The notes under the pieces: generated by a model
What the model saw: only the letters and a program-made list of their open reading frames with translations
What the model was told of the DNA's origin: nothing
Database searches by the model: none
Translations under genes and position numbers: made by a program
In this document: piece after piece, positions 4,921 through 64,000 of the stretch
How the letters are laid out: each line of letters begins with the position of its first letter
How positions within the stretch are numbered: position 1 is the stretch's first letter
NCBI RefSeq assembly: GCF_963855985.1
Contig: NC_087090.1
Location: 16,490,501 to 16,554,500, forward strand
From: Ostrinia nubilalis
Taxonomy: Eukaryota; Arthropoda; Insecta; Lepidoptera; Crambidae
Direction of reading: 5' to 3'
Length of the DNA: 64,000 bases

Positions 4921-6220
4921 TACATATGTTTTTATTTATAGCATAATCAATATTGTTTGTTGACTGTTTGTTATTTTGTTTCGACATTTTAATGGAGAAA
5001 CTGCATTCACTTATTGCTTTTAAAATTAGACAAAGCGAGAAGTCTGAAAGCAAAGTACCTATCTACATAAAACAAATTAAAAGACGTAGAATGCAAAAAT
5101 TGTTTCTTAAGTACCAAATACGCGCGAAAAAGTTTTGAAGTTTTGCATTACCCCGCGTTGGGCGCCAAATTTGCCAGATAGTCGTACACAGCCGGCCTTC
5201 ATACATAGATGAAGTTATTCTACGAACATAGTAATTTGTTATAAGATCATTGTTATATTAATTGATTTGGAGGTATTCATTAGCAGCATCTGTTAGGTTA
5301 ATTGAATGTTTTTATTTATTTTATACGTAGATACCTACTTCTTGGACTTGTAAAAACTAAACGACTTATTGATAAAAAAAATTAAAACTGTAGGTATTTT
5401 ATTTAACACTGATTTACTGTTAATTTCACTGAGATGACCAAACAACAACTATATCAAAATACTGTTGTAATTACAACGGTGTAACAGAAATGTTTTTGTT
5501 TTTGTCCTTGGGACTCGCAAAAACAATACACTATTTTTAGTAACTTTTATATTTCCTTAAGCCAAAAGAACATTGAACTTTAAGGCAGGAAGTGGAAATG
5601 ACCCAATAAAAAGCCGCCCCTTGGTTTTTTGTTGCCTCTATAAATCCTGTTTAACAACAACTGATTAATCAGTTAAGACTTTTTCAATTCATACGTTTTC
5701 GTATCTCATATCACATTATGATAGCATTATAATATTTACCTATAAATTAATTAATCCAATAATCAAAATAACTTGTTACTTTTGTTTAAGTACATAGAAG
5801 CTTGCCTCTTGATCTTATTTAGATTTTTTTCTAGGCTTAAATATTTTGGGTTTCCCTCGTTTGCTTCGGTTTTGCGGTGGTGGTTCATGTACCATATTTA
5901 ATTTATCCATTTATTAGCTTGCAACTTGTTTTTACTCACATGTCCAGATGATATGAAAACAAACAATTTATACATACCCATGTATAAGTACACCAACCAC
6001 CAACATCAATAATGAACTACTTCCATCTTAAGAGTATAATCATCATTTATTCGATTTTAATTTGCAATATTGTAGATTACTTACGGTCGGTGGAGATAGA
6101 AGGAGTCCAATATAAAATCTTTAGGAAACCTCTTTCAATTTCTCATTTCTTCAAGTGTGATTTCGAGATCCTCTTTAATTTTTTTTAATTTCGCAATTTA
6201 ATTGAGTTTCCCTCGTCCAG
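4921..6220. other. Probable intron or upstream sequence, no gene seen
   Basis: AT-rich and free of supported reading frames. A second primer-binding-site-like word lies at 5151-5169. The stretch ends in a pyrimidine-rich acceptor (TTTCCCTCGTCCAG) at 6220. Confidence 0.35.
5151..5169 (-). other. tRNA-Lys-type primer-binding-site relic 2
   Basis: On the minus strand this reads TTTGGCGCCCAACGCGGGG, again close to the tRNA-Lys primer-binding site of gypsy-like elements. The flanks differ from those of the other two sites, and no LTR is recognisable. Confidence 0.35.
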
Positions 6221-6379
6221 AACAAAACAACGATGAGTTGGAGACCACAAGCGGCGACCGCAGCCGGCGCGAGAGCGCGTGGGCCGGCCGCGCGACGCCC
6301 CCGGCCGCCTCCTTCCCCATGCAGAACTCCAGCCACGTCAAGTTCGAGCCGCCAAACGTGCCGGTCATATTCGTCCTGG
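6221..6379 (+). CDS. AK5: AK5-like adenylate kinase, exon A (before P-loop 1)
   Basis: This is the first exon I can support in a two-domain adenylate kinase, a family that transfers phosphate between ATP and AMP. It has 159 bases, acceptor CGTCCAG at 6220 and donor CTGG|GTATGT. It begins with the last two bases of a codon and ends with the first base of the glycine codon completed by exon B. The translation is hydrophilic and then ends in the short beta strand NVPVIFVLG, which leads straight into the P-loop in the next exon, exactly as in adenylate kinases. The sequence is GC-rich against AT-rich surroundings. An in-frame ATG lies at 6319, but the preceding frame is also open, so the true start is probably further upstream. 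Partial copies of its 3' third follow at 6501 and about 6945. Confidence 0.75.
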
Positions 6380-6454
6380 GTATGTACTGAATCTTGAAGT
6401 AAATAGTACATAGAGTGACACTACATTTGGTATATTTGACACGAGACGGCGCGC

Positions 6455-6503
6455 GGAAAAAGACGCGACCAGGAGGCGTAGTGCCCTGGTCGCGTCTTTT
6501 TCC
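6455..6503. repeat. Perfect 19-bp inverted repeat (hairpin) at the exon A duplication junction
   Basis: The arms 6455-6473 (GGAAAAAGACGCGACCAGG) and 6485-6503 are exact reverse complements around an 11-base loop. The right arm runs directly into the duplicated exon A piece and supplies the pyrimidine tract of the acceptor-like site there. Confidence 0.9.
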
Positions 6504-6612
6504 TATGCAGAACTTCATCCAGCCACGTCAAGTTCGAGCCGCCAAACGTGCCGGTCATATTCGTCCTGGGTATGTACTGAATCTTGCACTAACTAGTAAT
6601 ATAGAGTGACAA
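6501..6612 (+). repeat. Partial tandem copy of exon A with its donor
   Basis: This repeats the 3' third of exon A plus the start of its intron (source about 6317-6420) almost perfectly, including the GGGTATGTACTGAATCTTG donor region. An extra 4 bases near 6514 break the frame. A strong acceptor-like run (TCTTTTTCCTATGCAG, ending 6510) precedes it, so a 59-base cryptic exon 6511-6569 is conceivable. Its length is not frame-compatible with exon A, so I treat it as a decayed duplication and not as an alternative exon. Confidence 0.8.
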
Positions 6613-24369: not shown

Positions 24370-24898
24370 TGTAAATAGTTGTAAATATCTTTAGTTATAA
24401 AAGTAAAAGCGGGTAAAAATGTATATAAGAATATTATGCGGTTGCGTAAGTAAAATAATGGCGAGCGGGTGATGTATAGAAAAATAATGGCGGGTAGCGA
24501 ACGCTGAGACGCTGTGTTGTGCGTGATCGAACTTAACTGAACAACGAAATGAATAATGGAATGCAAATACGTTATTATGTAATTATGAAATCTAAATTTC
24601 AATTATTAGAATTGAGAGTGAATTAGCGGTGATGTGATATAACCAAAAGTAACTTGAAGTCACGCAAATGCGGTGCGGAAATAAAATAAACAAAAATAAA
24701 ATAGTTGTCAACGCGGTTAAATAATTATAATGTCGACAATCTACTTTTATCTGCGTGATACAAATACTCATACGTTATATCCAAAATGGCGGGTTAAATA
24801 AAATAAAATTTGCGGGTTAAAGATATGTGTTGTAAAGTTAAATTTAAATAAAAATATGCGGTTAAATAACGTAAAAATCGTATTTTAGATGCGAATAT
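24370..24898 (-). other. BEL 5' leader between primer site and gag start
   Basis: About 530 bases of AT-rich leader with repeated GCGGTTAAAT words and no open frame before the polyprotein ATG. Confidence 0.6.
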
Positions 24899-32330: not shown

Positions 32331-32513
32331 ATTCAGACCATAAGCGGCGTAGTGCTCGTCAGCTGGCGACAGCGAGTCCTGGAGAGACAGATCGAGTACG
32401 GAGCCCGGTTGGGACATGTGGTCCTGAGTCTAGCCAGGATGGAGCTCAACAACTTCTACAAGAACGTCATGCCGGTCGCCGACTACTTCGACCAGTCCAA
32501 TATGCTCATAGCG
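32331..32513 (+). CDS. AK5: AK5-like adenylate kinase, exon D (LID region of domain 1)
   Basis: 183 bases, phase 0 at both ends: acceptor TTGTTCCAG, donor ATAGCG|GTGAGT. It encodes 61 residues, from IQTISGVVLVSW through RQRVLERQIEYGARLG to MPVADYFDQSNMLIA. This corresponds to the latter half of an adenylate kinase domain: the strand after the GYPR helix, the arginine-rich short LID and the helix ending D-Y-F/Y before the last strand. The join from exon C (EYSDK) to this exon and on to exon E (VNGERNPEEVYKDF) reads as one domain. It is followed by a tandem array of its own 3' part. Confidence 0.85.
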
Positions 32514-32905: not shown

Positions 32906-33047
32906 GAGGGTGCTGGAGGGGCAGATCGAGTACGGAGCCCGGTTGGGACATGTCGTGCTGAGTCTGGCCAGGATGGAGCTCAACAACTTCTACAAGAACG
33001 TCATGCCGGTCGCCGACTACTTCGACCAGTCCAACATGCTGATAGCG
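32906..33047 (+). repeat. Partial exon D copy 2
   Basis: Reproduces exon D from RVLERQIEYG to the donor (open frame LEGQIEYGARLG onward to NMLIA|GTGAGT) with few changes, for example arginine to glycine at the start. The first 15 or so codons of exon D are replaced by intron-type sequence, and no pyrimidine-rich acceptor precedes it (TCCTCGAG only). Confidence 0.85.
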
Positions 33048-33413: not shown

Positions 33414-33556
33414 CGAGGGTCCTGGAGAGACAGATCGAGTACGGAGCCCGGTTGGGACATGTCGTGCTGAGTCTAGCCAGGATGGAGCTCAACAACTTCT
33501 ACAAGAACGTCATGCCGGTCGCCGACTACTTCGACCAGTCCAATATGCTCATAGCG
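33414..33556 (+). repeat. Partial exon D copy 3
   Basis: Nearly identical to the intact exon D from CTGGAGAGACAGATCGAG to ATAGCG|GTGAGT, closer to the original than copy 2. As in copy 2, the 5' part and the acceptor are missing. Confidence 0.85.
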
Positions 33557-36173: not shown

Positions 36174-39100
36174 GTCAAGTCAAGTCAAGTCAAGTCAAAG
36201 TCAAGTCAAAATTTCTTTATTTGTTTAGACTAATAAATAGTTCTTACAAATCGTCATTTTGCTCTTAAGGAGCCTCTACATGTCTCATAATCTTTTTACC
36301 CTACCAGCGCTTCGAGACCAACATTTGGCAAGTGCTGAGAAGAAGCGCCGCAACAAACTCAGTCACCACTGTCTGCCGGTTAATATAAATAAATAGAAAT
36401 AGCAGTAGTAGGTACATTCGATTCAGGAGCAGTTCACTGAATTTACCATGCATTCTTGTATAGTGTATCTTATAAGAATGGGTATACAAAATTGCGTGGC
36501 ATATTAAACAAGGTAGTGACGTGCTAATATCTAGACTTACAGATTACATACTCAAATACTAGTAGAAATGACTCGCATACATAAGTTGGAATAACTTGGA
36601 TTGACCAGTCCCCGAAAGCAGCGCCTGTTCACAGACATGACGAGTGAACCAGCCATCGCTTCACTCGACCATATTAGAGGGAATGTAACGACCCGCCTCA
36701 CTACGCCACCACCCCAGAGACATTTTAGTGAGAATGACAATACCAAGTTATCTCTTAGAGAAAAAAAAACTAATAATAAAGCTAAGTAACAGTCCAGATT
36801 GAGAAGCATGACACTATAACATTTTAGAAAATTAGATTAGTTTATACATTACTTTTCATAGCACGATTTTAATTCTTTTTAGTGCGAGCATGAGAGGACC
36901 ATAATCCTACTCCCAGGATGACTTATCATTAAGAAAATCTCGAGTTGTATAATAGGCTTTTTTAAGCATGTGATCTTTAACTATACCTTTAAATTTATTG
37001 TACGGTAGCTCTTTATATTTATCAGGGACTTTGTTATAAAAATGGATACCTTGTCCCATAAAGGTGGCAAACACTTTATTAAGTCTAAAAGCGGGTATAG
37101 CCAATTTATTTTTATTTCTAGTATTGATTTGGTGAATATCACTTTTCTTTTTGAATTCATTAATATTTTGTTGAATAAATAGAATACAGTTTAAGATGTA
37201 TTGTGAAGCGGCCGTGAGAATGCCAATTTCTTTAAACAATTCTCTAAGGGACGCTCTTGATTTCATTTTATACAAGTATCTTATGGCACGTTTTTGCAGA
37301 ATAAATATTGTTTCAAAATCTGCAGCTTTGCCCCATAGCATGATTCCATATGACATTAGGCTATGAAAGTAGCTAAAGTAGACTAAGCGAGCTGTTGATA
37401 CATCGGTTAATGACCGTATCCTTTTTATTGCAAAAGCCGCTGAGCTGAGCTTTCCCGCCAGAGTTTCTATATGGGAGCCCCACTGGAGTTTTGAATCCAG
37501 GGTAATTCCCAGAAATACAGTAGATTCTACCAGATCGATTGCATTATTATTAAGTTCTATTTGGGTACTAACTGTTTTTACGTTAGGCAAAGAGAATTTT
37601 ATACATTTTGTTTTCTTTGCATTCAGTTGTAGATTATTTGTAGTGAACCAACTTAAAACTCTTGTTAGTGCATTATTTACATCGTCAAAGTTATTTTTAC
37701 TTCTATCAATATTAAAAATCAAAGATGTGTCATCAGCAAATAACACGATTTCGCAAGAGTCTTTAACAAAATATGGTAGATCATTAATGTATATAAGAAA
37801 CAAGAATGGACCCAGAATGGACCCCTGCGGAACTCCCATTTTCACAGGTGACCCAGAAGACAAAACACCATTTATGTCGACTTTTTGAACTCTAAAGTTT
37901 AAATAGGATTGTATTAAATCCAAAGCCGAGTCCTTTACCCCATAATAGTGCAGTTTGCGAATTAGCGTTTGATGTTCTACGCAGTCAAAAGCTTTTGAGA
38001 GATCACAGAAGACCCCTAGTGCATTTTGAGAATTTTCCCAAGCCTCGAAGATATGTTTAAGTAGTGCAACCCCGGCATCGGTGGTGGAACGACCCTTGGT
38101 AAAACCATATTGTTCACTATGAAATAGTTTATTAGAGCCAAAGTGAATCATAAGTTGCTCCTGTATGATTTTTTCAAAAATCTTGCTCAAAGCGGGCAAG
38201 ATAGAAATGGGTCTATAATTGCCAGGGTCGGTTTTGCTACCAGACTTAAATAATGGCATTAGTCTACTGTGTTTCATGAGGTCGGGGAAGATTCCCTTCT
38301 CTATGCAATTATTGAATATTATCGCTAACTGTGGGGAAATTATATCAATAATGTGTTTGACTATCTTGACAGAGATGCCCCAGATATCAGTTGTACTCTT
38401 TACATTTAAAAGATTAAAAGTTTTAGTGATATCTAATGGAGTAATATGTTTAAAAGAGAAGTGCGAGTCACAGGGTGTCACGTGGGTTTTCAATATTTCT
38501 TCAGCCTCGGAGGGAGATGACTTTAAGTTGGCAGTTGTTGCTGAAGCTATATTAACAAAAAATTTGTTAAAAGCTTCTGCTACATCTTTATCTGCAGATA
38601 TCAAATTATCGTGAACTTTGAGAGAAAAGTCATTATCTCTTGGTTTTAGTTTACCAGTCTCTCGGTTGATAACATTCCAAGTTTCTTTTATTTTATTACT
38701 GGCGTTTCCTATCTTGTCCCGAATATAAAAAGACTTAGCCATGAAGCAAACTTTCTTAAAAATTTTTGAATACTTTTTCACATGCTCAAGAAAAGATATA
38801 CTATTATTATACTTTTTCATGCCATAAAGCTCATATAACGTATTTCGACTTTTGTATATTCCCTTAGTAGCCCAGTCACTAAACTTAGATTTGGTATTTG
38901 GTTTTAATGGCTTTACAGTAAAAACTTTGTCATGTTCGGTTTTAATACATTCGAAAAGGTTATTGTAAAGAGCATCTGGGTCTCCCTGCACGTACGGCAC
39001 TAAATGCAATTTATTTCCAAGATTATTCTTAAAACGTTCTAGACGACTAATGGTTACAGGTCTACATACGGCATTTTTGTTACTTGTATTATTAGAATTA

Positions 39101-39830
39101 TTAAAAATAAATTCTACTTTAATACCACAGTGATCTGACGTAAGATTGTGTATGACAGTTTTTTTGTCAGGGACACAGCTAGAGAAAATATTATCTAGAC
39201 AAGTAGCTGTGGTTTCCGTAATTCTAGTTGGCTCCTTAAATTGACTAAACAAATTAAATGACTTAAAAAGGGAAAGTAGTCTTACAGAATATGATGATGA
39301 GCTATCTAGTAAATTGACGTTAAAATCTCCACAAACTAAGACCTTTTTGTTGCTGTTACAAGTTTTATTAAGAGCATCCTCAATAGCCGCTTCAAAAATA
39401 CCAAAGTCCCCAGAAGGGGGTCTATACACACATACAATGATGTAACTCTCAAGCTCGACACAGGAAATTTCGATAACACGCTCAACTGATAGCCCTACTA
39501 CATCTTTGCGTTCTTTACATTTAATATTATTATTGACAAATATTAAGGAGCCTCCGTGAATGGCAGACTTCCTGTAAAACGCGCTACATAACTGATAATT
39601 ATCTATGTAAAGAGAGCTTTCATATTTCTTAAGCCAGTGTTCAGTAATACACATTACATTAATGTCAAAACTTTTTAAGAAAAGCTCTAATTCTAAAACT
39701 TTGCTGGTCAAGCCTTGAATATTTTGATGAACAATCTTGAATGTTCCAGACTTGGCCTTTGTCGAGTGCCTCAGTTTAAACAACTAGTAGTAGGTACAGT
39801 CTTACAAATAACTTAAATTAAAAAGAATAT
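36174..39830 (-). mobile_element. CR1/Jockey-group LINE inside the hAT element
   Basis: The minus-strand element runs from about 39830 to a (TTGAC)n tail at 36174-36215, with the ORF at 39783-36907. The 700-bp 3' untranslated region includes a GAGTTTGTTGCGGCGCTTCT segment, as in many lepidopteran CR1-like elements. No ORF1 (gag-like) is present before the ORF, so the copy is probably 5'-truncated. The limits are approximate. Confidence 0.8.
36907..39783 (-). CDS. LINE endonuclease-reverse transcriptase (ORF2)
   Basis: An open frame of 958 codons. The N-terminal 225 residues form an AP-type endonuclease: HQNIQG (19-24), TEHW (47-50), YRPPSGDF (120-127), GDFN (152-155) and SDHCG (216-220). The reverse transcriptase follows with NYRPISILP (522-530), DLSKAFD (594-600), GVPQGSILGP (650-659) and the catalytic FADD (682-685). 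The C-terminus holds the usual helical and cysteine-poor tail. The frame begins directly after a stop with TTG, not ATG. The first in-frame ATG would cut into the endonuclease, so either the start lies in lost sequence or the copy is truncated. No internal stop exists, which suggests a young insertion. Confidence 0.9.
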   Translation of the reverse strand: MFKLRHSTKAKSGTFKIVHQNIQGLTSKVLELELFLKSFDINVMCITEHWLKKYESSLYIDNYQLCSAFYRKSAIHGGSLIFVNNNIKCKERKDVVGLSVERVIEISCVELESYIIVCVYRPPSGDFGIFEAAIEDALNKTCNSNKKVLVCGDFNVNLLDSSSSYSVRLLSLFKSFNLFSQFKEPTRITETTATCLDNIFSSCVPDKKTVIHNLTSDHCGIKVEFIFNNSNNTSNKNAVCRPVTISRLERFKNNLGNKLHLVPYVQGDPDALYNNLFECIKTEHDKVFTVKPLKPNTKSKFSDWATKGIYKSRNTLYELYGMKKYNNSISFLEHVKKYSKIFKKVCFMAKSFYIRDKIGNASNKIKETWNVINRETGKLKPRDNDFSLKVHDNLISADKDVAEAFNKFFVNIASATTANLKSSPSEAEEILKTHVTPCDSHFSFKHITPLDITKTFNLLNVKSTTDIWGISVKIVKHIIDIISPQLAIIFNNCIEKGIFPDLMKHSRLMPLFKSGSKTDPGNYRPISILPALSKIFEKIIQEQLMIHFGSNKLFHSEQYGFTKGRSTTDAGVALLKHIFEAWENSQNALGVFCDLSKAFDCVEHQTLIRKLHYYGVKDSALDLIQSYLNFRVQKVDINGVLSSGSPVKMGVPQGSILGPFLFLIYINDLPYFVKDSCEIVLFADDTSLIFNIDRSKNNFDDVNNALTRVLSWFTTNNLQLNAKKTKCIKFSLPNVKTVSTQIELNNNAIDLVESTVFLGITLDSKLQWGSHIETLAGKLSSAAFAIKRIRSLTDVSTARLVYFSYFHSLMSYGIMLWGKAADFETIFILQKRAIRYLYKMKSRASLRELFKEIGILTAASQYILNCILFIQQNINEFKKKSDIHQINTRNKNKLAIPAFRLNKVFATFMGQGIHFYNKVPDKYKELPYNKFKGIVKDHMLKKAYYTTRDFLNDKSSWE

Positions 39831-42104: not shown

Positions 42105-42705
42105 TGTTGAGAGGGGCTATGTGTGGTCAATTAAAGGCTGACTCCAAATTACAATGAACATTTATTTCGAAAACGGACGGTCTTATATAGGAAAATATTT
42201 ACAAAATGAGACAAGGACAAAACATATACCTATTTCACAGAGAACGATTACAAACATTTTAGGGTAAGACAATAAAACGATTACCTACAAACATTATAAT
42301 AAACGGTCAGAGCGAGACAGAAGGAGAACAGTATATCTATTTCACACTACACAAATATAAATAAGATGGAGGGTACACAAATTATTGATACTGAATTTAG
42401 AATGAGATAGCCTGAACTTACAAATACATCTGTTTCATACAACATGGAAATAACACTTAAAAGACGGTACACGAATATTAATTAATAAGCAAGATAGATA
42501 AGGACAGCAAGAAGTTAGTATAGGTTTGTTTCACACAACAAAAATATTACACAAAAACAAGGGTACTTCAATAAATAAATAAAAACAGATTACCGACATC
42601 TTAAAATAAAAAATCTAGTAGTAGTCTAGGGCAAAGCAGCTCTCATCGTCCAGTGCGGCGGTGCTGCCGGTATGATGCGGACGTATGTCATGTGGTGTCG
42701 CCACA
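42105..42705 (-). repeat. Gypsy 3' LTR (601 bp)
   Basis: Matches 46178-46778 without a difference that I can see. It adjoins the polypurine tract and so is the 3' LTR. Confidence 0.93.
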
Positions 42706-42715
42706 TAGCTCCCCC

Positions 42716-45700
42716 TCAAGCGAAGCGTACAACTGGTTTCACTATTCTTCCGGATCGTGTTCTCGTCGCGGTTGTAGTGGTCGCGGGCGTCTTCGTAGTG
42801 ATGTCGGTAGTGATGTTGTGATCGTTAATGTCTTCGTTGAGTGTGTAAGCAGGCTTTAGTCGATCGATCGAGACGTTGACTTCGCGGTCGGGTAGTTTTA
42901 TGCGAAATACTTTGTCATCTCGCCGTAGCACAGGATACGGGCCTTCATACGGCGCTTGCAGTGATCTTCGGCCGGAGTCGATGCGCAGAAATACACTTTC
43001 GCAGGATTGGAGATCTTTGTGCACGAAAGTTTTAGTGTTGTGTCTTACTGGTTCAGCGGCTTTGAATTCGTTGATAGTGTGACGTAATCGTTCCACGTAG
43101 GTGTAGTCCATATTTTGTAGTGACGTCATCGGGGTGTTATTGAAGAAATCTCCCGGTAATCTTATATTAGTTCCGTAGGTCAGTTGTGCGGCGCTTACTC
43201 CGGTGTCTTGTCTTGTTGCAGCTCGTAGTCCCAGCAGAACGGTAGGTAAAGCGTCAAGCCATTTAGTGTTACGGCTGTTTAGGCTCGCAGTAAGGGCGGT
43301 CTTGAGAGTTCGGTGCCACCGTTCTACAATCCCATTGGACTGCGGATGATATGCGGTAGTTCTTGTCTTCTCTATGCCAAGTAGTTTAGTGAGTGATGTG
43401 AAAAGTTGGCTCTCGAACTGGCGTCCTTGGTCACTCGTCAGTGTCGAGGGACACCCAAATCGTGAGATCCATCCTTCGTAGACGTGTCTGGCTACTGTCT
43501 CGGCGGTTATCTCGTGCAGAGGTATGGCTTCTGGCCAACGGGTTGTGCGGTCTATCATTGTGAGTAGATATCTATGGCCATGCTGTGAAGGCGGTAGTGG
43601 CCCGACGATATCGACGTGTAGGTGTTGAAATCTCTCAGTTGGTGGAAATGAGGTATAGTTGCTGCTGGTATGTCGGTTTATCTTGGCCTTTTGACATGGT
43701 ATGCACGCTTTGGTCCAGTTGCTGATGTCGGCGTTCATCGATGGCCAAAAGTATCTTTCAGTGAGCATTTTTCGGGTTGTGCGAATGCCAGGATGACTTA
43801 AGTTGTGTATTGCGTTGTATGCTATACGTCGAAAGTCTTGAGGTAGATACGGCCTTACGTTTGCGGTAGATGTCTCACAGTAGATACTTGCACTATTAGA
43901 CATCGCAATTTTTTTGAAGTGTAGATTGTCTTGCTTCATAAGTGTTGTTAAATTGCTGTCTTTTTCTTGTGCCAATGCAAGTTGATCGTAGTCAATAGTA
44001 CTCGGGCATGTTATGTCTTCTATGCGAGAGAGCGAGTCGGCAACAATGTTCTCTTTCCCACTTATGTGACGAATATCACTTGTGAACTCACTGATAAATA
44101 GTAGCTGGCGGGTACGACGTGGAGTTTCAGTGTCAGATGTTTTCTTCAGCAGGGCGTAAGTGATTGGCTTGTGGTCGGTGAATATAGTGAGCTGCCTGCC
44201 TTCAAACATTTTGCGAAAATGTTTTACTGCCATGTAAATTGACAGTAGTTCTCGGTCGTACGTCGAGTATCGTTGTTGCGTATCGGATAATTTCTTTGAA
44301 AAGTAGCCCAGTGGTTGCCACTTGTCATGCTGGTATTGTTGTAGCACAGCTCCGGCGCAGGTGTTAGATGCGTCACACATAAGTGCTATTGGTGCGTCGT
44401 ATGCGGGATGCGCGAGTAAAGCTGCGTTTTGAAGGCTAACTTTACACGCTTCGAATGCTTGTGTAGCTTCATCAGTCCATACAATCTTTGTTTTATCGTT
44501 TTTCTTGCTATTATGTAGGTACGCGTTCAGTGGAGCTTGTATAGATGCGGCTTGTGGTATGGCGTCTCTGTAGAAGTTGACAGTGCCGAGGAATCTTCTC
44601 AGTTCTTCGATAGTATTAGGGCGAGGGAATGCACTGATTGCACTCACTTGCTCATCAGGTGGTTTAATGCCGTGCTGTGACACCATGTAGCCCAGAAACT
44701 TGACTTCTTCCTGGCCCAGTGTACATTTCGATGGATTGATAGTGATTCCGTATTCGTTCAGCTTACTCAACACGGTGCGCAGGTGGAGAATGTGGGCTTC
44801 TTCAGTTTCAGAACTGATCAAGACGTCATCAATGAATGGGAAAACGTAATCGAGCCCTTGTAGCACTTCATTTATAAACCGTTGAAAGGTTTGTCCGGCG
44901 TTCTTCAAACCTGGGCACATTCTCGGGAACTCAAACAGGCCGAAGGGAGTAATTATTGCTGTCTTCTCGATGTGAGCGCTGAATACTGGCAGTTGCTGGT
45001 AGGCTCTGTTGAGGTCTATGGTGGAGAATATCTTCTTTCCGTTGAGTTGATAGGTGAAGTCTTTAAGACGTGGCACAGGGTAGCGGTCAGGTTTAGTGGC
45101 AGCGTTAAGTCTTCTATAATCGCCGCATACCCTGATGTCACCGTTCTTCTTGGGCACTACGTGCAGTGCACTTGCCCACGGGCTTTTGCTCGGTCGGCAT
45201 AGGCCCTGTTCCACCATGACCTCAAATTCTTTCTTAACAGCTGCGTAGCGATGAGGCGGAATGGGTCTTGCTTTGCAGTATACTGGTGGTCCGGTTGTTT
45301 CTATATAATGCTCGACGCAGTGTTTCGGTGTTTCTTTCATTGTTGATATTCGAGTTATTTCAGGAAATTCAGCTAATATATCGTGATATTTCTGACTGCT
45401 GTCGATGCTTCGAATTGTTGGTGTAGGGTAGTTTGAAATCTTTGTCTTCACTGATAAGTTTGTGACTTCATCTCTGAGGCTTCTACCCGCAATATCTACG
45501 AGTATCTTGTGATATTCTAAGAAATCAGCTCCAATTATCGGTTTGCTGACGGCGGCTATGATGAATTTCCATCTGAATGGACGACGTAGGCCAAGGTCCA
45601 ACTCGAGCGTCTTCTCACCGTAGGTAGGTATTATAGTGTTGTTAGCTGCATACAAATTGAACGTTGTAGGCTTCATTTGCTGGCTACTTCTCTTGGGAAT

Positions 45701-45865
45701 GACGGAGATGTTCGCACCGGTGTCGATCAAAAACATCAGTTTTGTTTTCTTGTCGGTAACGAAAAGACGGTGTGATTGAACTCTAGCGCTGGTGCCCGTC
45801 TCTGCCAACGCTAATGCTAGTTTTCCGGCACATTTTTCTTCATGAATGTACAATTGTCTGCACAT
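42716..45865 (-). CDS. Gypsy pol polyprotein (protease, RT, RNase H, integrase)
   Basis: 1049 codons from an ATG at 45865, uninterrupted. Aspartic protease LIDTGANISVIP (46-57); reverse transcriptase with YRRLNAATKPDRYPVPR (250-266), FSTIDLNRAYQQ (280-291) and FIDD (344-347) in the YXDD position; RNase H with CDASN (about 490), YDREL and FTDHKP; integrase zinc motif HPGIRTTRKML...CIPCQKAK (about 675-715); core with VDIVGP, TSDQGRQF and HPQSNGIVERWH. The C-terminus is short with no chromodomain, and it stops 10 bp before the 3' LTR. The frame lies at -1 relative to the upstream gag frame, which it overlaps by 49 bp, so expression by -1 frameshifting is likely. All key residues are present. Confidence 0.95.
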   Translation of the reverse strand: MCRQLYIHEEKCAGKLALALAETGTSARVQSHRLFVTDKKTKLMFLIDTGANISVIPKRSSQQMKPTTFNLYAANNTIIPTYGEKTLELDLGLRRPFRWKFIIAAVSKPIIGADFLEYHKILVDIAGRSLRDEVTNLSVKTKISNYPTPTIRSIDSSQKYHDILAEFPEITRISTMKETPKHCVEHYIETTGPPVYCKARPIPPHRYAAVKKEFEVMVEQGLCRPSKSPWASALHVVPKKNGDIRVCGDYRRLNAATKPDRYPVPRLKDFTYQLNGKKIFSTIDLNRAYQQLPVFSAHIEKTAIITPFGLFEFPRMCPGLKNAGQTFQRFINEVLQGLDYVFPFIDDVLISSETEEAHILHLRTVLSKLNEYGITINPSKCTLGQEEVKFLGYMVSQHGIKPPDEQVSAISAFPRPNTIEELRRFLGTVNFYRDAIPQAASIQAPLNAYLHNSKKNDKTKIVWTDEATQAFEACKVSLQNAALLAHPAYDAPIALMCDASNTCAGAVLQQYQHDKWQPLGYFSKKLSDTQQRYSTYDRELLSIYMAVKHFRKMFEGRQLTIFTDHKPITYALLKKTSDTETPRRTRQLLFISEFTSDIRHISGKENIVADSLSRIEDITCPSTIDYDQLALAQEKDSNLTTLMKQDNLHFKKIAMSNSASIYCETSTANVRPYLPQDFRRIAYNAIHNLSHPGIRTTRKMLTERYFWPSMNADISNWTKACIPCQKAKINRHTSSNYTSFPPTERFQHLHVDIVGPLPPSQHGHRYLLTMIDRTTRWPEAIPLHEITAETVARHVYEGWISRFGCPSTLTSDQGRQFESQLFTSLTKLLGIEKTRTTAYHPQSNGIVERWHRTLKTALTASLNSRNTKWLDALPTVLLGLRAATRQDTGVSAAQLTYGTNIRLPGDFFNNTPMTSLQNMDYTYVERLRHTINEFKAAEPVRHNTKTFVHKDLQSCESVFLRIDSGRRSLQAPYEGPYPVLRRDDKVFRIKLPDREVNVSIDRLKPAYTLNEDINDHNITTDITTKTPATTTTATRTRSGRIVKPVVRFA

Positions 45866-46143
45866 TTTCTTGCGTTGTGGCCAAACTTGCGATGATAGTA
45901 GCAGTACGGCGAGTTGCTGGGCGTCTGGCTTCGGTTGCGGCTATTCGATCGAGATGATTGCCGATTCTGTCTCCAGTTTCGATAGGGTGAACGTCCTCGT
46001 TGGTTATTGTGCGTCACTAGTTGCGTAATAGCTTCTGTCAGCTTGTCGATCTTGTCTTCTAACGTGTTGTATCTTGACATGACAGTAGGTGGTACAGCAG
46101 GTGCAGGATCTTGTGGCAGCCGTCCCTCAGGGTTTGTGTTCAT
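45817..46143 (-). CDS. Gypsy gag remnant, nucleocapsid end only
   Basis: 108 codons from ATG at 46143, only 35 bp from the 5' LTR. It contains VPPTVMSRYNTLEDKIDKL, typical of the end of a gypsy gag after the capsid, then an arginine/serine-rich stretch and a single zinc-knuckle-like CYYHRKFGHNARKC. A normal gag is about 300 or more residues. Here the matrix and capsid parts are missing while the start codon and frame are kept, as if by an in-frame deletion. Particle assembly would need gag from another copy. Confidence 0.8.
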   Translation of the reverse strand: MNTNPEGRLPQDPAPAVPPTVMSRYNTLEDKIDKLTEAITQLVTHNNQRGRSPYRNWRQNRQSSRSNSRNRSQTPSNSPYCYYHRKFGHNARKCADNCTFMKKNVPEN

Positions 46144-46177
46144 TTTGATGTATGATGTGTTCGGTAGGGGTCACCAC

Positions 46178-46778
46178 TGTTGAGAGGGGCTATGTGTGGT
46201 CAATTAAAGGCTGACTCCAAATTACAATGAACATTTATTTCGAAAACGGACGGTCTTATATAGGAAAATATTTACAAAATGAGACAAGGACAAAACATAT
46301 ACCTATTTCACAGAGAACGATTACAAACATTTTAGGGTAAGACAATAAAACGATTACCTACAAACATTATAATAAACGGTCAGAGCGAGACAGAAGGAGA
46401 ACAGTATATCTATTTCACACTACACAAATATAAATAAGATGGAGGGTACACAAATTATTGATACTGAATTTAGAATGAGATAGCCTGAACTTACAAATAC
46501 ATCTGTTTCATACAACATGGAAATAACACTTAAAAGACGGTACACGAATATTAATTAATAAGCAAGATAGATAAGGACAGCAAGAAGTTAGTATAGGTTT
46601 GTTTCACACAACAAAAATATTACACAAAAACAAGGGTACTTCAATAAATAAATAAAAACAGATTACCGACATCTTAAAATAAAAAATCTAGTAGTAGTCT
46701 AGGGCAAAGCAGCTCTCATCGTCCAGTGCGGCGGTGCTGCCGGTATGATGCGGACGTATGTCATGTGGTGTCGCCACA
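46178..46778 (-). repeat. Gypsy 5' LTR (601 bp)
   Basis: Identical by eye to 42105-42705. The gag start and primer site are adjacent on its inner side, and GCAAA follows outside. Confidence 0.93.
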
Positions 46779-57268: not shown

Positions 57269-57547
57269 GTAAACGGCGAACGAAACCCAGAAGAAGTGTA
57301 CAAGGACTTCAGGGCTGCTGTTCTCCAGATCCTGGGCACGCATGAGGACCAAGCAGCCCTCAACGGGGTTGGGACCGGGGGCATCCCTGGGGAAATTGTG
57401 GGGGTGGAACCCGCCCCTACTGCGAGGAGGCCTAGTACACCAGTGAGGGTAGAAGACACGGAGGAGGAGGCGTCTGCTCTGCCCATAGCAGCGCCGGTGG
57501 TCACGCCACCCAGAGAGAACGGACGCGCTGAAATTATCATGCCGAAG
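57269..57547 (+). CDS. AK5: AK5-like adenylate kinase, exon E (end of domain 1 and linker)
   Basis: 279 bases, phase 0 at both ends: acceptor CTATCTTCCAG, donor CCGAAG|GTAAAA. The first 25 residues, VNGERNPEEVYKDFRAAVLQIL, match the final strand and helix of an adenylate kinase domain (family pattern: a G.P..V...F...V..IL ending), completing domain 1 begun in exon A. The rest, about 65 residues rich in Pro, Ala, Glu and Val (VGVEPAPTARRPSTPVRVED and on), has no fold pattern and looks like a flexible linker to domain 2. Part of this linker (57366-57463) is copied three times downstream, fused to exon F sequence. Confidence 0.8.
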
Positions 57548-59916: not shown

Positions 59917-60077
59917 TCCCAACTGATCACCGTTCAGGGTTTTCTGAACAGCCACCAGCCGCAGCCTCCGGTGGGCGCCCCTCCGCCCGTGCTGTGGGTG
60001 GTGGGCGGCCCCGGCAGCAACAAGGCCACGCTGTGCCAACGAGTCGTTGCTAGGAGGCAGGGCTGGACGCATTTCAG
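59917..60077 (+). CDS. AK5: AK5-like adenylate kinase, exon F (P-loop 2)
   Basis: 161 bases, acceptor GTTCTTTCCAG and donor TTTCAG|GTGAGA. Phase 0 at start, two bases carried to exon G. After a proline-rich lead (HQPQPPVGAPPP) comes strand VLWVVG and P-loop GGPGSNKATLC, then RRQGWTHFS with the serine completed in exon G. In family terms this is the start of a second adenylate kinase domain. The P-loop is unusual: asparagine stands where the glycine before the catalytic lysine is normally found, and alanine follows the lysine. The lysine and following threonine are kept. Whether this domain is catalytic cannot be told from sequence. Three chimeric partial copies follow. Confidence 0.82.
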
Positions 60078-60823
60078 GTGAGATTAACTTGGGTTGGGAC
60101 TGGGGTATCCGAGAGGAGATCGTGGGGATGGAACTCGCCTCTACTGCGAGGAGGCCTAGTACACCGGTGAGGGTAGACGACACGGAGGTAACAAGGGGTG
60201 GTTTTCTGATCAACCACCCGCAGCCTCCCATGTACGGTCCCGGCAGCAACAAGGCGACGCTGTGCCAACGAGTCGTTGCTAGGAGGCAGGGCTGGATGCA
60301 TTTCAGGTGAGAAGACAATAGGGTTAGGACTAGGGGTTTTCCAAGGGAGATCGTGGGGGTGGAACCCGCCCCTACTGCGAGGAGGCCTAGTAAACCAGTG
60401 AGGGTAGAAGACACGGAGGTAATAAGGGGTAGTTTTCTCAAAAGCCACCAGCCGCAGCCTCCGGTGGGCGCCCCTCCGCCCGTGCTGTGGGTGGTGGGCG
60501 CCCCTCCGCCCGTGCTGTGTGGTGTGGTGTGGTGGTGGGCGGCCCCGGCAGCAACAAGGCGATGAAATTAGGGCTGGGATTGGGGGTATCCCAGGGGAGA
60601 TCGTAGAAGTGAAACCCACCCCTACTGCGAGGAGGCAAAAGTACACCAGTGAAGTTAGACGACACGGAGGTAACAAGTGGTGGTTTTCTGAACAACCACC
60701 AGCCGCAGCCTCCGGTGGGCGCCCCTCCGCCCTTGCTGTGGGTGGTGGGCGGCCCTGGCAGCAACAAGGCCACGCTGTGCCAGCGAGTCGTTGCTAGGAG
60801 GCAGGGCTGGACGCATTTCAGGT
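60078..60823 (+). repeat. Three tandem chimeric units: exon E piece fused to exon F
   Basis: Each unit starts with a copy of exon E 57366-57463 (GGGTTGGGAC...GACACGGAG; for example CTACTGCGAGGAGGC in all three) and passes without an intron into exon F from about GGTTTTCTG onward. Units run at about 60093-60307, 60313-60560 and 60569-60821. The first lacks the GAPPPVLWVVG part. The second has it doubled and breaks off inside the P-loop codons. The third keeps exon F to TTTCAG|GTGAGC. Frame is kept across the E/F junction (VRVEDTE then V(I/T)RG(G/S)FL). No acceptor-like pyrimidine tract precedes any unit. Confidence 0.85.
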
Positions 60824-60942: not shown

Positions 60943-61152
60943 AAGCCTGGTCCGTGAGCACGTAGAATTTTGGCCAATGACCCCAAGCTACCCATCCTTA
61001 TCGCTCGCGCGTAATTATGTTGCTGTCGCGCTCGCACACTCACTGCAAGCGCCCGTCGCACAGTCGCGACAGCAATATGATTACGCGCGAGCGATAAGGA
61101 TGGGTAGCTTGGGGTCATTGGCCAAAATTCTACGTGCTCACGGACCAGGCTT
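60943..61152. repeat. Foldback element with about 88-bp arms
   Basis: AAGCCTGGTCCGTGAGCACG and its reverse complement CGTGCTCACGGACCAGGCTT close the ends. The arms pair through GCTACCCATCCTTATCGCTC and CGCGCGTAAT with very few mismatches. A non-coding MITE in the intron between exons F and G. Confidence 0.88.
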
Positions 61153-61619
61153 TATGTATTTCTAAGAAATAGCATTCGTTGCTAGCGACACGTCGTCTGA
61201 AAGTATTAAAATACGTAGATACCAGTAGTGTCGCGACGACACGTCTGCTGCGTTCAGTCGGCTACGAAATCATACTTTTAGTCGTGTGGGTCCAGCAAGG
61301 TTGAACAGGACCACTTTTTCTGTGCCCGTAGAAAGCAGGCGTGTTGTAAAAGACGACCAAGGGAAAATGTTATCTCTCCAACCCGTCTGTTCTGAGTGGG
61401 AGTAAGGGTCAAATCCTTCATACGTGCTCCTGCAAGGAGCCTCCTGGAAGAAGGCTGCATAACCTCATGATGATGATTGTTTTAATTTGAGTGTTTGAGC
61501 TTCATTCAAACCCTCAAATTAAATCAATAAATAAAATATAAATATTGATGTTGGACTGATGGATGGATAATAATAACCGATATAATGTTCAATCTAAAAA
61601 TAACCTTTCTCTCCCCCAG
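61153..61619. other. Intron end before exon G, nothing recognised
   Basis: No feature seen other than the strong acceptor CTTTCTCTCCCCCAG at 61619. Confidence 0.4.
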
Positions 61620-61839
61620 TCTCGGCCAACACTTGCGTGCGTTAGCCGACGCAGGCGGAGGCCCGGCTTCTGATGGAGCCCTAGCCCGGGCCTCCCTTAG
61701 CGGAGGCGAGCTGGTCCCTGAGGAGCTGGTCAACAAGGTCGTGAGGGGCGCCATGAACGAAGCCTCAAGGAACGACCAAGGGCTCGTGTTGGAGGGGTAC
61801 CCGAGGGACATGGAGCAGGTGGAACATTTCCAGAAAGAG
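61620..61839 (+). CDS. AK5: AK5-like adenylate kinase, exon G (GYPR motif of domain 2)
   Basis: 220 bases. The first base completes the serine started in exon F, and the exon ends on a codon boundary at CAGAAAGAG|GTGCGT. The translation runs SLGQHLRALADAGGG, through ELVPEELVNKVVRGAMNEAS, to GLVLEGYPRDMEQVEHF. That is the order expected after a P-loop: first AMP-binding helices, an L(V/I)P turn, the long helix, strand and GYPR whose arginine binds AMP. The remaining LID and C-terminal part of domain 2 must lie beyond the window, because the rest of the window is a tandem array of this exon's 3' 132 bases. Confidence 0.85.
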
Positions 61840-64000
61840 GTGCGTAATTTGGTGTCTTATAAGTATACGATTTAGTTCCGGAGGAGCTGGTCAACAAGGT
61901 CGTGAGGGGCGCCGTGAGCGAGGCGTCAAGGAACGACCTGGGGCTCGTGTTGGAGGGATACCCGAGGGACATGGAGCAGGTGGACCATTTCCAGAAAGAG
62001 GCGAGTCAAAATCATGATTGGGTCAGTTTTATTCTAAGAACAGCTCGATTACTGAGGCGAGCTGGTCCCTGAGGAGCTGGTCAAGAGGGTCGTGAGGGGC
62101 GCCATGAACGAAGCGTCAAGGAACGACCAGGGGCTCGTGTTGGAGGGATACCCGAGGGATATGGAGCAGGTGGACCATTCACAGAAAGAGGTGCGTAGAA
62201 ATAATCTTGATTTTGTCAATTTTATCCTTAGAAAAGCTCGTCTCCTTATGGGAGCTGGTCCCTGAGGAGCTGGTCAACAAGGTCGTGAGGGGCGCCATGA
62301 ACGAAGCGTCAAGGAACGACCAGGGGCTCGTGTTGGAGGGATACCCGAGGGACATGGAGCAGGTGGAACATTTCCAGAAAGAGGTGCGTAGTCATAATTA
62401 TGATTGGGACAGTTTTATTCTTAGAAAAACTAGCCTCCTTAGGCGAGCTGGTCCCTGAGGAGCTGGTCAACAAGGTCGTGAGGGGCGCCGTGAGCGAGGC
62501 CTCGAGGAACGACCAGGGGCTCGTGTTGGAGGGGTACCCGAGGGATATGGAGCAGCTGGAACATTTCCAGAAAGAGGTGAGTCAAAATCATGTTTGGGTC
62601 AGTTTTATTCTCGATTACTAAGGTGAGCTGGTGCCTGAGGAGCTGGTCAACAAGGTCGTGAGGGGTGCCGTGAACGAAGCCTCGAGGAACGACCAGGGGC
62701 TCGTGTTGGAGGGGTACCCGAGAGACATGGAGCAGGTGGACCATTTCCAGAAAGAGGTGCGTAGAAATAATCTTGATTTTGTCAGTTTTATTTAACCTTA
62801 GAAAAGCTCGTCTCCTTATGCGAATCAGTTTTATTCTTAGAACAGCTCGATTACTAAGGTGAGCTGGTCTCTGAGGAGCTGGTCAACAAGGTCGTAAGGG
62901 GCGCCGTGAGCGAGGCGTCAAGAAACGACCAGGGGCTCGTGTTAGAGGGATACCCGAGGGACATGGAGCAGGTGGAACATTTCCAGAAAGAGGTGCGTAG
63001 TTTGGTGTCTTAAGTATACGAGTTAGTTCCGGAGGAGCTGGTCAACAAGGTCGTGAAGGGTGCCGTGAGCGAGGCGTCGAGGAACGACCACGAGCGCGTG
63101 ATAGGTGGACCATTTTCAGAAAGAGGTGCGTGGTCAAGATCATGGTTTATTTAGTTTTGTATGTAGGCGAGCTGCTCCCTGAGGAACTGGTCAAATAAGG
63201 TCTTGAGGGACGCCGTCAGCGAGGCCTCGAGGAACGACCAAGGGCTCGTGTTAGAGGGGTACCCGAGGGACATGGAGTAGGTGGACCATTTCCAGAAAGA
63301 GGTGCGTAGAAATAATCTTGATTTTGTCAATTTTATCCTTAGAAAAGCTCGTCTCCTTATGCGATCTGGTCCCTGAGGAGCTGGTCAACAAGATCGTGAG
63401 GGGCGCCGTGAACGAAGCGTCAAGGAACGACCAGGGGCTCGTGTTGGAGGGGTACCCGAGGGATATGGAGCAGGTGGAACATTTCCAGAAAGAGGTGCGT
63501 AATTTGGTGTCTTATAAGTATACGAATTAGTTCCGGAGGAGCTGGTCAACAAGGTCTTGAGGGGCGCCGTGAGCGAGGCGTCAAGGAACGACCTGGGGCT
63601 CGTGTTGGAGGGATACCCGAGGGACATGGAGCAGGTGGACCATTTCCAGAAAGAGGTGCGTAGTCATAATTATGATTGGGACAGTTTTATTCTTAGAAAA
63701 GCTCGTCTCCTTATGCGAGCTGGTCCCTGAGGAGCTGGTCAATAAGGTCGTGAGGGGCGCCGTGAGCGAAGCGTCAAGGAACGACCTGGGGCTCGTGTTG
63801 GAGGGATACCCGAGGGTCATGGAGCAGGTGGACCATTTCCAGAAAGAGGTGCGTGTCAAAATCATGATTGGGTCAGTTTTATCCTTAGAACACCTCGATT
63901 ACTTAGGTGAGCTGGTGCCTGAGGAGCTGGTCAACAAGGTCGTGAGGGGTGCCATGAACGAAGCGTCAAGAAACGACCAGGGGCTCGTGTTGGAAGGGTA
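61840..64000 (+). repeat. Array of at least 12 further copies of the exon G 3' segment
   Basis: A 132-bp (44-codon) segment from ELVPEELV to HFQKE, first present at 61708-61839 inside exon G, recurs at 61869, 62059, 62252, 62445, 62625, 62861, 63020, 63169, 63363, 63524, 63717 and 63909; the last is cut by the window end. Most copies are followed by GTGCGT or GTGAGT (GCGAGT once). Spacers are 29 to 104 bp, usually 29 or about 60, and of a few recurring types. Copy 63020 has lost 26 bp and copy 63169 has a frameshift and a stop. The others keep the frame, varying at M/V, N/S, Q/L and E/D positions. No in-phase acceptor is evident. Confidence 0.92.

What the first reader, a model, noticed from the sequence alone, without database searches (positions are those of the whole stretch)
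61620..64000. Thirteen-copy array of a 44-codon kinase segment carrying the GYPR motif
The sequence shows the 3' 132 bp of exon G plus a splice donor repeated with a period of 161-236 bp to the end of the window. About ten copies keep an open frame and the GYPR motif, and they differ mainly by conservative changes. Pure intronic satellite would not be expected to keep frame so well unless it is very recent or homogenised. Yet splicing from the GAG|GT donor to the AG sites I can see in the spacers (for example TTTTATCCTTAG) puts the next copy out of frame, and 29-bp spacers are too short to be introns. It may be a young coding-derived minisatellite, a source of decoy donors, or an unrecognised alternative-exon system.
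Basis: partly seen in the sequence, partly recalled or inferred. Interest (0 to 1): 0.87.

Follow-up and report, generated by a model that had tools for sequence, protein, structure and literature searches.

The report
Exon-end repeats filling moth introns
In a moth's adenylate kinase gene, and in several unrelated genes of the same genome, pieces of exons that carry one splice site are repeated inside the neighbouring intron and still look protein-coding, although they apparently cannot be normal exons; this gives many ready-made tests of how cells choose splice sites and how exons exchange sequence with their copies.

Summary
The array is real. It lies in the intron after exon G of a moth adenylate kinase isoenzyme 5 (AK5) gene: 13 copies inside the window (exon included, last one cut), about 320 bp more beyond it, 14 donor sites in all. 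It does not look like an alternative-exon system: each copy lacks the exon's 5' part and acceptor.

The larger finding lies outside the coordinates. The same intron ends in a mirror array: six copies of acceptor plus the first 101 bp of exon H. Six of the 11 AK5 exons mapped have intronic copies. So do a neighbouring AK1-like gene, one unidentified gene and five of eight multi-match chaperonin (PF00118) genes on other contigs. Twelve exon families copy the 3' end, one the 5' end. Six other Lepidoptera have AK5 models with repeated exon pieces (6 of 53 models; 0 of 70 non-lepidopteran).

In eight families tested, nonsynonymous differences (about 1%) are far rarer than differences in the intron part of the same units (about 7.5%). 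I infer tandem duplication across exon edges, filtered by splicing, with continuing exchange with the live exon. Filter and exchange are inferred, not shown. No RNA was available.

The parts
6220..6380 (+). AK5 exon B (coding, reads EQNNDELETT...)
6484..6570 (+). copy of exon B 3' end (nt 80-161) with donor, 87% identical
32334..32513 (+). AK5 exon D
32910..33047 (+). copy of exon D 3' end (nt 43-180) with donor GTGAGT, 94%
33419..33556 (+). copy of exon D 3' end with donor GTGAGT, 98.6%
57269..57547 (+). AK5 exon E
59917..60077 (+). AK5 exon F (P-loop of the second kinase domain)
60091..60188 (+). internal piece of exon E (nt 98-196) inside the F array
60235..60306 (+). copy of exon F 3' end (nt 90-161) with donor
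60316..60419 (+). internal piece of exon E (nt 93-196)
60432..60504 (+). internal piece of exon F (nt 23-95), no exon edge
60493..60560 (+). internal piece of exon F (nt 54-110), no exon edge
60571..60670 (+). internal piece of exon E (nt 98-196)
60682..60821 (+). copy of exon F 3' end (nt 22-161) with donor
61620..61839 (+). AK5 exon G (full; contains array copy 1)
61868..62000 (+). G 3'-end copy 2 (donor GCGAGT)
62044..62190 (+). G 3'-end copy 3, donor GTGCGT
62252..62383 (+). G 3'-end copy 4, donor GTGCGT
62441..62576 (+). G 3'-end copy 5, donor GTGAGT
62621..62756 (+). G 3'-end copy 6, donor GTGCGT
62857..62992 (+). G 3'-end copy 7, donor GTGCGT
63019..63125 (+). G 3'-end copy 8, deleted (no GYPR), donor kept
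63165..63301 (+). G 3'-end copy 9, frameshifted, donor kept
63361..63494 (+). G 3'-end copy 10, donor GTGCGT
63523..63655 (+). G 3'-end copy 11, donor GTGCGT
63715..63848 (+). G 3'-end copy 12, donor GTGCGT
63893..64000 (+). G 3'-end copy 13, cut by the window end (runs to 64040 in the genome; two more pieces at 64098-64233 and 64277-64322, then the mirror array of exon H 5' ends at 64568-66180 and full exon H at 66293-66457)

Best explanation
The array is a tandem duplication across the 3' edge of AK5 exon G (exon end, donor, start of intron), amplified in the downstream intron. It is one case of a class that recurs in this genome: intronic copies of partial exons that keep at most one of the exon's two splice sites, usually the donor, downstream of their exon; in one case the acceptor, upstream of it. 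SHOWN: anatomy; recurrence in AK5, an AK1-like gene, one unidentified gene and five chaperonin genes; protein-like conservation in most of the families measured. INFERRED: (1) mainly duplications that leave one complete acceptor-exon-donor unit survive, because splicing pairs the exon's acceptor with the nearest donor and passes over half-exons; (2) the 12:1 excess of downstream donors over upstream acceptors arises because a decoy acceptor is transcribed before the real one and can capture splicing, whereas a decoy donor comes after the real one; (3) copies and the live exon keep exchanging sequence by unequal crossing-over or gene conversion, so copies with damaging codons are purged when they enter the live exon. 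This would keep copies protein-like without their being translated.
For:: G copies begin inside the exon and run through the donor; mirror array of six H 5' ends, each preceded by AG, in the same intron; 6 of the 11 AK5 exons mapped have copies (C, C2, I, J, K have none); exons overlap local duplications 4 of 7 (P 0.003-0.007) to 5 of 7 (P 0.0004-0.007). AK1-like exons; unidentified exon; chaperonin genes; 42 copies in nine exon families, 187 synonymous and 82 nonsynonymous differences from the parent, 77.6 synonymous expected, one stop; over eight families (my sums of its rows) pN about 0.010, pS about 0.13, intron part of the same units about 0.075; 22 of 36 site pairs fail the four-gamete test in the G array; in the H array synonymous divergence 0.218 versus 0.019 in the spacers beside it, so exon parts and spacers have different histories, as exchange would give; exon G of P0001 differs from exon G here at one residue (D for E) that is itself variable in the array.
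Against: No RNA, no second individual and no conversion event was observed; P0001 may be another species. If exchange with the live exon were frequent, synonymous differences should also be erased, yet they are large (pS up to 0.29), and no pool that holds so many synonymous variants is identified. In the H array nonsynonymous divergence (0.012) is not clearly below that of the spacers (0.019): there the oddity is an excess of synonymous change, not a lack of nonsynonymous change. B (3 synonymous, 3 nonsynonymous), F (5, 5) and E (19, 20) show little codon bias; private variants of G are neutral; the C30 copy compares 3 synonymous to 6 nonsynonymous codons, though its exon end was not fixed. 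Frame-compatible AG sites exist before some copies, so inclusion as cassettes is not excluded. The 12:1 count is small, and eight of the 13 families lie in one 303-kb region.
Confidence: 0.5

Rival explanations
1. Plain neutral exon-derived minisatellites: tandem duplication by replication slippage or unequal crossing-over, no exchange with the exon, no function; the preserved frame only reflects recent origin.
For: Private variants in the G array are at the neutral expectation (6 of 21 synonymous, 6.8 expected). Two of 12 complete G copies are broken. B, E and F show little codon bias. In the H array nonsynonymous divergence (0.012) is close to that of the spacers (0.019).
Against: In eight families nonsynonymous differences are about 1.0% while the intron part of the same units differs by about 7.5%; a neutral copy against a constrained exon should show about half the intron value. 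H copies against exon H: 41 synonymous and 2 nonsynonymous. Non-exonic local duplications in the same 303 kb have 60% or more of their differences in one phase in 3 of 36 pairs; exonic pairs of at most 170 bp in 7 of 14 (only the exonic set had the length limit).
Confidence: 0.2
2. The copies are used: rare or tissue-specific transcripts include them as in-frame cassettes or alternative ends, and selection acts on them directly.
For: A database model of Cydia fagiglandana AK5 (P0121, LOC134663393) contains the exon D segment eight times in frame. In-frame AG sites precede some G copies. Copies in eight families have low pN.
Against: H copies have an acceptor but no donor directly after the exon piece. 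Copies 2-13 of G lack the exon's acceptor and first 71-88 bases. P0001 joins G to H directly. In several copies the AG nearest to the copy start gives a length not divisible by three. Direct selection would not make synonymous divergence 11 times that of the adjacent spacer. For three of the six other species with repeats (Choristoneura, Chilo, Pararge) another listed model lacks them. The Cydia model may be a prediction without RNA support; I could not check.
Confidence: 0.15
3. Assembly artefact: collapsed or expanded repeats, or haplotype mixing.
For: The species, read type and coverage are unknown to me; arrays are hard to assemble.
Against: G copies beside the same spacer type differ by 1 to 18 bases over 80 to 120 aligned, with several spacer types; equivalent arrays lie at many loci; repeated exon pieces also appear in AK5 models of six other Lepidoptera from other assemblies.
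Confidence: 0.05

Closest known systems
[quoted passage not shown] Drosophila near intron pairs, PMC2891723; abstracts and section lists seen)
   Same: Duplication of exonic sequence, in the potato case across an intron-exon edge, with splice signals inherited from the parent.
   Different: There a duplication creates a new intron. Here many copies pile up inside an existing intron, no new intron is seen, and the pattern recurs across exons and genes.
Mutually exclusive exon clusters such as Dscam (recalled; related titles seen in search listings)
   Same: Tandem arrays of similar coding segments inside one gene region.
   Different: Dscam exons are complete with acceptor and donor (recalled). 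These copies keep at most one of the two, and the near-identical gene model uses one copy.
Coding-derived minisatellites and satellite DNA (recalled)
   Same: Tandem units, variable spacing, mixed unit variants.
   Different: Copies run up to a splice site, and in eight families nonsynonymous sites are conserved relative to the intron part of the same unit.
Tandem exon duplication (recalled)
   Same: Exon sequence duplicated beside its source in the intron.
   Different: The usual cases (recalled) duplicate whole exons that can be spliced; here no whole-exon copy was found for the AK5 exons, the two AK1 exons or the DNA-checked chaperonin exons. For the unidentified exon, whose start I do not know, and for the last exon of the C12 chaperonin gene, which matched twice (DNA not checked), it is not excluded.

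Membership tests
Adenylate kinase isoenzyme 5 gene (AK5) | Two tandem adenylate kinase domains with P-loops and best similarity to annotated AK5 | tested here: met
   P0001: two stretches of PF00406; its exons map to the locus; the E-F-G query is 82% identical to an adenylate kinase of Loxostege sticticalis and about 53-60% to lepidopteran proteins named AK5
Mutually exclusive exon cluster | Each array member is a complete exon with its own acceptor and donor | tested here: not met
   G copies start at exon nt 72-89 without the exon's acceptor; H copies end at nt 101 without a donor there. Other AG sites lie before some G copies
Mutually exclusive exon cluster | Different members appear in different mRNAs | not testable with these tools
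   no RNA data; only one gene model (P0001) from another assembly
Tandem-duplication intron gain | A new intron forms between two copies of an exonic segment | tested here: not met
   the copies lie inside one intron between G and H; P0001 joins G to H
Neutral minisatellite | Copies evolve without codon constraint | tested here: inconclusive
   against: pN about 0.010 versus about 0.075 in the intron part of the same units over eight families; for: G private variants, B, E and F, and H nonsynonymous divergence close to its spacers
Neutral minisatellite | Head-to-tail tandem units with recombination between units | tested here: met
   four-gamete failures 22 of 36 in the G array

The most novel reading that the evidence does not exclude
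In this moth, and perhaps in Lepidoptera at large, exon ends are current occupants of one position in rotating intronic arrays. Splicing allows half-exon copies to pile up beside a gene's exons; unequal exchange repeatedly moves copies in and out of the live position. Selection on the live exon therefore filters whole arrays of untranslated copies, and the arrays in turn feed synonymous (and some amino acid) variants into the exon much faster than point mutation.
Probability: 0.3. Interest if true: 0.9.

Novelty: new variant of a known kind. Interest (0 to 1): 0.76.

Why it matters
Intron G-H offers the spliceosome 14 near-identical donor sites (13 GT, one GC), then seven acceptors, counting the real ones, across one 4.45-kb intron: a natural test of first-donor and last-acceptor choice, of exon definition and of co-transcriptional timing. 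The same genome repeats the test in several genes. Protein-like conservation of half-exons that keep only one splice site challenges the usual step from codon constraint to translation, and such copies could mislead gene finders: database models of six other moths and butterflies contain such repeats. If exchange with the live exon is real, it is a way for untranslated intronic DNA to shape coding sequence.

Tried and rejected
Alternative exons from the F donor: rejected, because copies lack the first part of exon G. Read-through of consecutive copies: rejected as a rule, because only 3 of 12 spacings (180, 159, 192) are multiples of three. A seamless switch from an internal donor of the parent to an acceptor before the copies: looked for by eye at the unit starts and not found. 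The idea that unit starts prefer AG came from the same listing; I chose it after seeing the data and do not claim it. Simple shedding of copies from an evolving exon: hard to square with synonymous changes on the copies themselves. Name of the unidentified gene: the peptide recalled METTL13-type methyltransferases to me, but Pfam and PDB searches gave nothing useful, so I leave it unnamed. The first repeat test by blastp self-comparison reported nothing, because only the full self hit is returned; I replaced it with windowed local alignments. One search counted the shared P-loop of the two kinase domains as repeats in 57 of 70 other models; one search leaves P-loop matches out. More gene families for an unbiased genome-wide rate (PF00227, PF00270, PF00579) did not complete. 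Ten paper searches listed, judged by titles and starts of abstracts, no paper on intronic half-exon arrays in Lepidoptera; the library holds only open-licence papers, so this is weak evidence of novelty. Two papers were opened (abstract and section list only).
Full report
THE OBSERVATION. Exon G of the gene runs from 61620 to 61839. Its last 120 bases recur at 12 further starts up to 63921, where the window cuts the last copy. Periods are 149 to 236 bp. Ten of the 12 complete copies, exon included, keep the 120-bp core open with GYPR; copy 8 has a deletion and copy 9 a frameshift. The window lies on contig C3 (16490501-16554500) of a 495-Mb assembly in 52 contigs, and the array stops about 320 bp beyond the window. 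In all there are 14 donor sites: 11 GTGCGT, one GTGAGT, one GTGCGC and one GCGAGT.

THE GENE. Protein P0001, nearly identical to the window's exons, is a 630-residue two-domain adenylate kinase; the next hit is an adenylate kinase of the moth Loxostege sticticalis (82% over the E-F-G query). P0001 comes from a 506,891-bp contig, so not from this 18.8-Mb contig; whether it is the same species I cannot tell. It differs from the sequence here in exon E, at one residue in exon J, and in exon G by one residue (D for E) that is itself variable among the array copies. It joins G directly to H. The whole-genome search with P0001 gave 37 matches: 36 on C3, one of which is the neighbouring AK1-like gene, and one on C17 at 28% identity. 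I mapped 11 exons; the first exon (MGICLDT) was not looked for.

MORE ARRAYS IN THE SAME GENE. With 40 kb fetched to extend the window downstream I mapped copies of the 11 exons. Copies of 3' ends lie downstream of exons B (1), D (2), F (2 reaching the donor, two internal pieces; three internal pieces of exon E lie in the same intron) and G (14 pieces beyond the exon: 12 align to the exon's last base, copy 8 keeps its donor behind a deletion, and the last, at 64277, is internal). Upstream of exon H there are six copies of its first 101 bases, each preceded by AG (the first aligns from nt 5). Thus intron G-H (4,453 bp) begins with an array of donors and ends with an array of acceptors. Exons C, C2, I, J and K have no copies at this sensitivity. 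Within the window alone, exons overlap local direct duplications more than random intervals do: 4 of 7 within 1 kb (P 0.0066 circular, 0.0027 independent), 5 of 7 within 3.5 kb (P 0.0068 and 0.0004).

OTHER GENES. In 303.5 kb of contiguous sequence (36 groups of local duplications) an AK1-like gene next door has its P-loop exon's 3' part copied five times and a later exon's 3' part three times. An unidentified minus-strand exon ending in AAG|GTTAGT is present eight times; its true start, and which of the eight is the exon, I do not know. A search for the chaperonin family PF00118 gave 68 matches on ten contigs. Eight contigs have more than one match (C6, C7, C11, C12, C16, C21, C27, C30; on C11 three matches share one 600-residue frame, so it may hold few introns). 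Five of the eight (C7, C12, C16, C27, C30) show extra matches that share the exon's 3' end and are cut at the 5' side. I checked DNA for one exon in each of those five. A second exon of C27 and the last exon of C12 also appear twice; their DNA was not checked. Counting families with DNA checked, 12 are of the 3'-end type (B, D, F, G, two AK1, the unidentified exon, C7, C12, C16, C27, C30) and one is of the 5'-end type (H); two-sided binomial P 0.0034. Donors were read directly for copies of B, D, F, G, both AK1 exons, C7, C16 and C27; my pattern missed the C12 donors and one AK1 copy, where the printed letters show GTTAG and GTGCG at the place; C30's exon end was not fixed, though its duplication runs well past the match. 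No whole-exon copy was seen for AK5, AK1 or the checked chaperonin exons.

OTHER SPECIES. Six hold repeated exon pieces: Operophtera brumata, Pararge aegeria, Choristoneura fumiferana (the weakest, 24 residues at 71%), Chilo suppressalis, Phthorimaea operculella and Cydia fagiglandana. None of 70 other models did; Fisher P 0.005 without P0001. For Pararge, Choristoneura and Chilo another listed model lacks the repeat (P0036, P0022, P0004). Of 17 models P0122-P0138, three of them already among the 70, one crayfish protein was flagged, for a short linker repeat. Only the best 120 of 212 hits were listed. Annotation methods differ between groups, and related species are not independent. The Cydia model holds the exon D segment eight times in frame; copies of the same exon segment lie in the window's D intron.

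CODON SIGNATURE. Among the ten full-length G copies, diversity per site at codon positions 1, 2 and 3 is 0.027, 0.041 and 0.117; 15 of 24 variable columns, with copy 13 included, are third positions (P 0.003). Over nine exon families and 42 copies there are 187 synonymous and 82 nonsynonymous differences from the parent exon, against 77.6 synonymous expected if the same base changes fell at random; there is one stop and nine indel positions. The bias is strongest in H (41 to 2), AK1 P-loop (20 to 2), the unidentified exon (11 to 2) and D (9 to 1). The second AK1 exon has 14 to 6 and G 65 to 41. It is weak or absent in B (3 to 3), E (19 to 20) and F (5 to 5). In G, shared variants are 14 of 19 synonymous (6.3 expected) and private ones 6 of 21 (6.8 expected).

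IS IT CONSTRAINT? One search splits duplicated units of eight families (D, C7, C12, two AK1, the unidentified exon, C27, C16; B, E, F, G, H and C30 are not in it) into exon and intron parts; C16 has no intron part to compare. My sums of its rounded rows (pairs share parents and are not independent) are 102 synonymous differences in about 770 sites, 23 nonsynonymous in about 2,326 and 250 intronic in 3,329. So nonsynonymous sites differ by about 1.0% and intron parts by about 7.5%. A neutral copy compared with a constrained exon should show about half the intron value. As a control, 3 of 36 non-exonic local duplicate pairs in the same 303 kb have 60% or more of their differences in one phase, against 7 of 14 exonic pairs (the exonic set was limited to 170 bp, the other was not). 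In the H array, for three unit pairs with the same spacer type, synonymous divergence is 37 of 170 sites while the spacers differ at 10 of 523 (Fisher P 6e-16) and nonsynonymous sites at 5 of 424. So in H nonsynonymous divergence (0.012) is close to the spacer value (0.019), and what is odd is the excess of synonymous change. Two H units share a 319-bp spacer (7 differences) but their flanking exon parts differ at 4 and 7 synonymous and 2 and 1 nonsynonymous sites. Exon parts and spacers therefore seem to have different histories.

MECHANISM. Established knowledge (recalled): splicing of short exons in animals tends to pair an acceptor with the nearest downstream donor, and introns are often removed during transcription. 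A tandem duplication that starts inside an exon and ends in the next intron leaves the original acceptor-donor pair intact; the extra donors lie behind it. The mirror duplication leaves extra acceptors in front of the real one, where they are transcribed first. A whole-exon duplication adds a complete exon. The observed order, 12 families with extra 3' ends, one with extra 5' ends, no whole exon among those that could be judged, is what such a filter predicts. This filter is inferred. For the codon signature I favour exchange between copies and the live exon: site patterns among G copies require recombination or repeated mutation (22 of 36 pairs fail the four-gamete test), and the P0001 exon carries a residue found in the array. 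Exchange with the live exon itself is not shown, and the large synonymous divergence remains unexplained. Direct use of copies as exons is the main functional rival; missing splice sites speak against it for H and for a normal reading of G, but in-frame AG sites before some copies keep it open.

WHAT IS NEW. Tandem duplication at exon-intron edges is known from intron-gain studies (PMC4974935 and PMC2891723; abstracts seen). Multi-copy arrays of half-exons with one splice site, recurrent across genes of one genome and conserved at the protein level, did not show up in the listings of ten searches of an open-licence library.

Noticed in passing
64568-66393 in window-based coordinates, outside the window: Synonymous divergence among H copies (0.218) is 11 times that of the spacers between them (0.019); the source of these synonymous variants is unknown.
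   Followed up: partly
61720-61839 and its copies: The motif reads LEGYPR in exon G and its intact copies, whereas many other lepidopteran AK5 proteins that I read have LDGYPR at this place.
   Followed up: no
42105-46778: Two 601-bp stretches 4,073 bp apart are 100% identical and flank a 1,074-residue minus-strand reverse-transcriptase-like frame: looks like a recent LTR retroelement insertion (type recalled).
   Followed up: no
60950-61160: A long inverted repeat in the F-G intron, seen by eye; pieces of similar text appear after exon I and in the unidentified gene.
   Followed up: no
66458-66472 in window-based coordinates, outside the window: P0001 uses a donor 15 bases downstream of the exon H end that I took, adding residues VSRQS before VDGD.
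   Followed up: no
104330-104572 of the joined region (L011:830-1072, minus): A third adenylate-kinase-like frame with an altered P-loop lies next to the AK1-like gene (PF00406 E 0.0007, below the curated cut-off).
   Followed up: no
19279-24390 and 36907-39783: Long open minus-strand frames of 1,703 and 958 residues that look like retroelement proteins, in AK5 introns (identity recalled).
   Followed up: no
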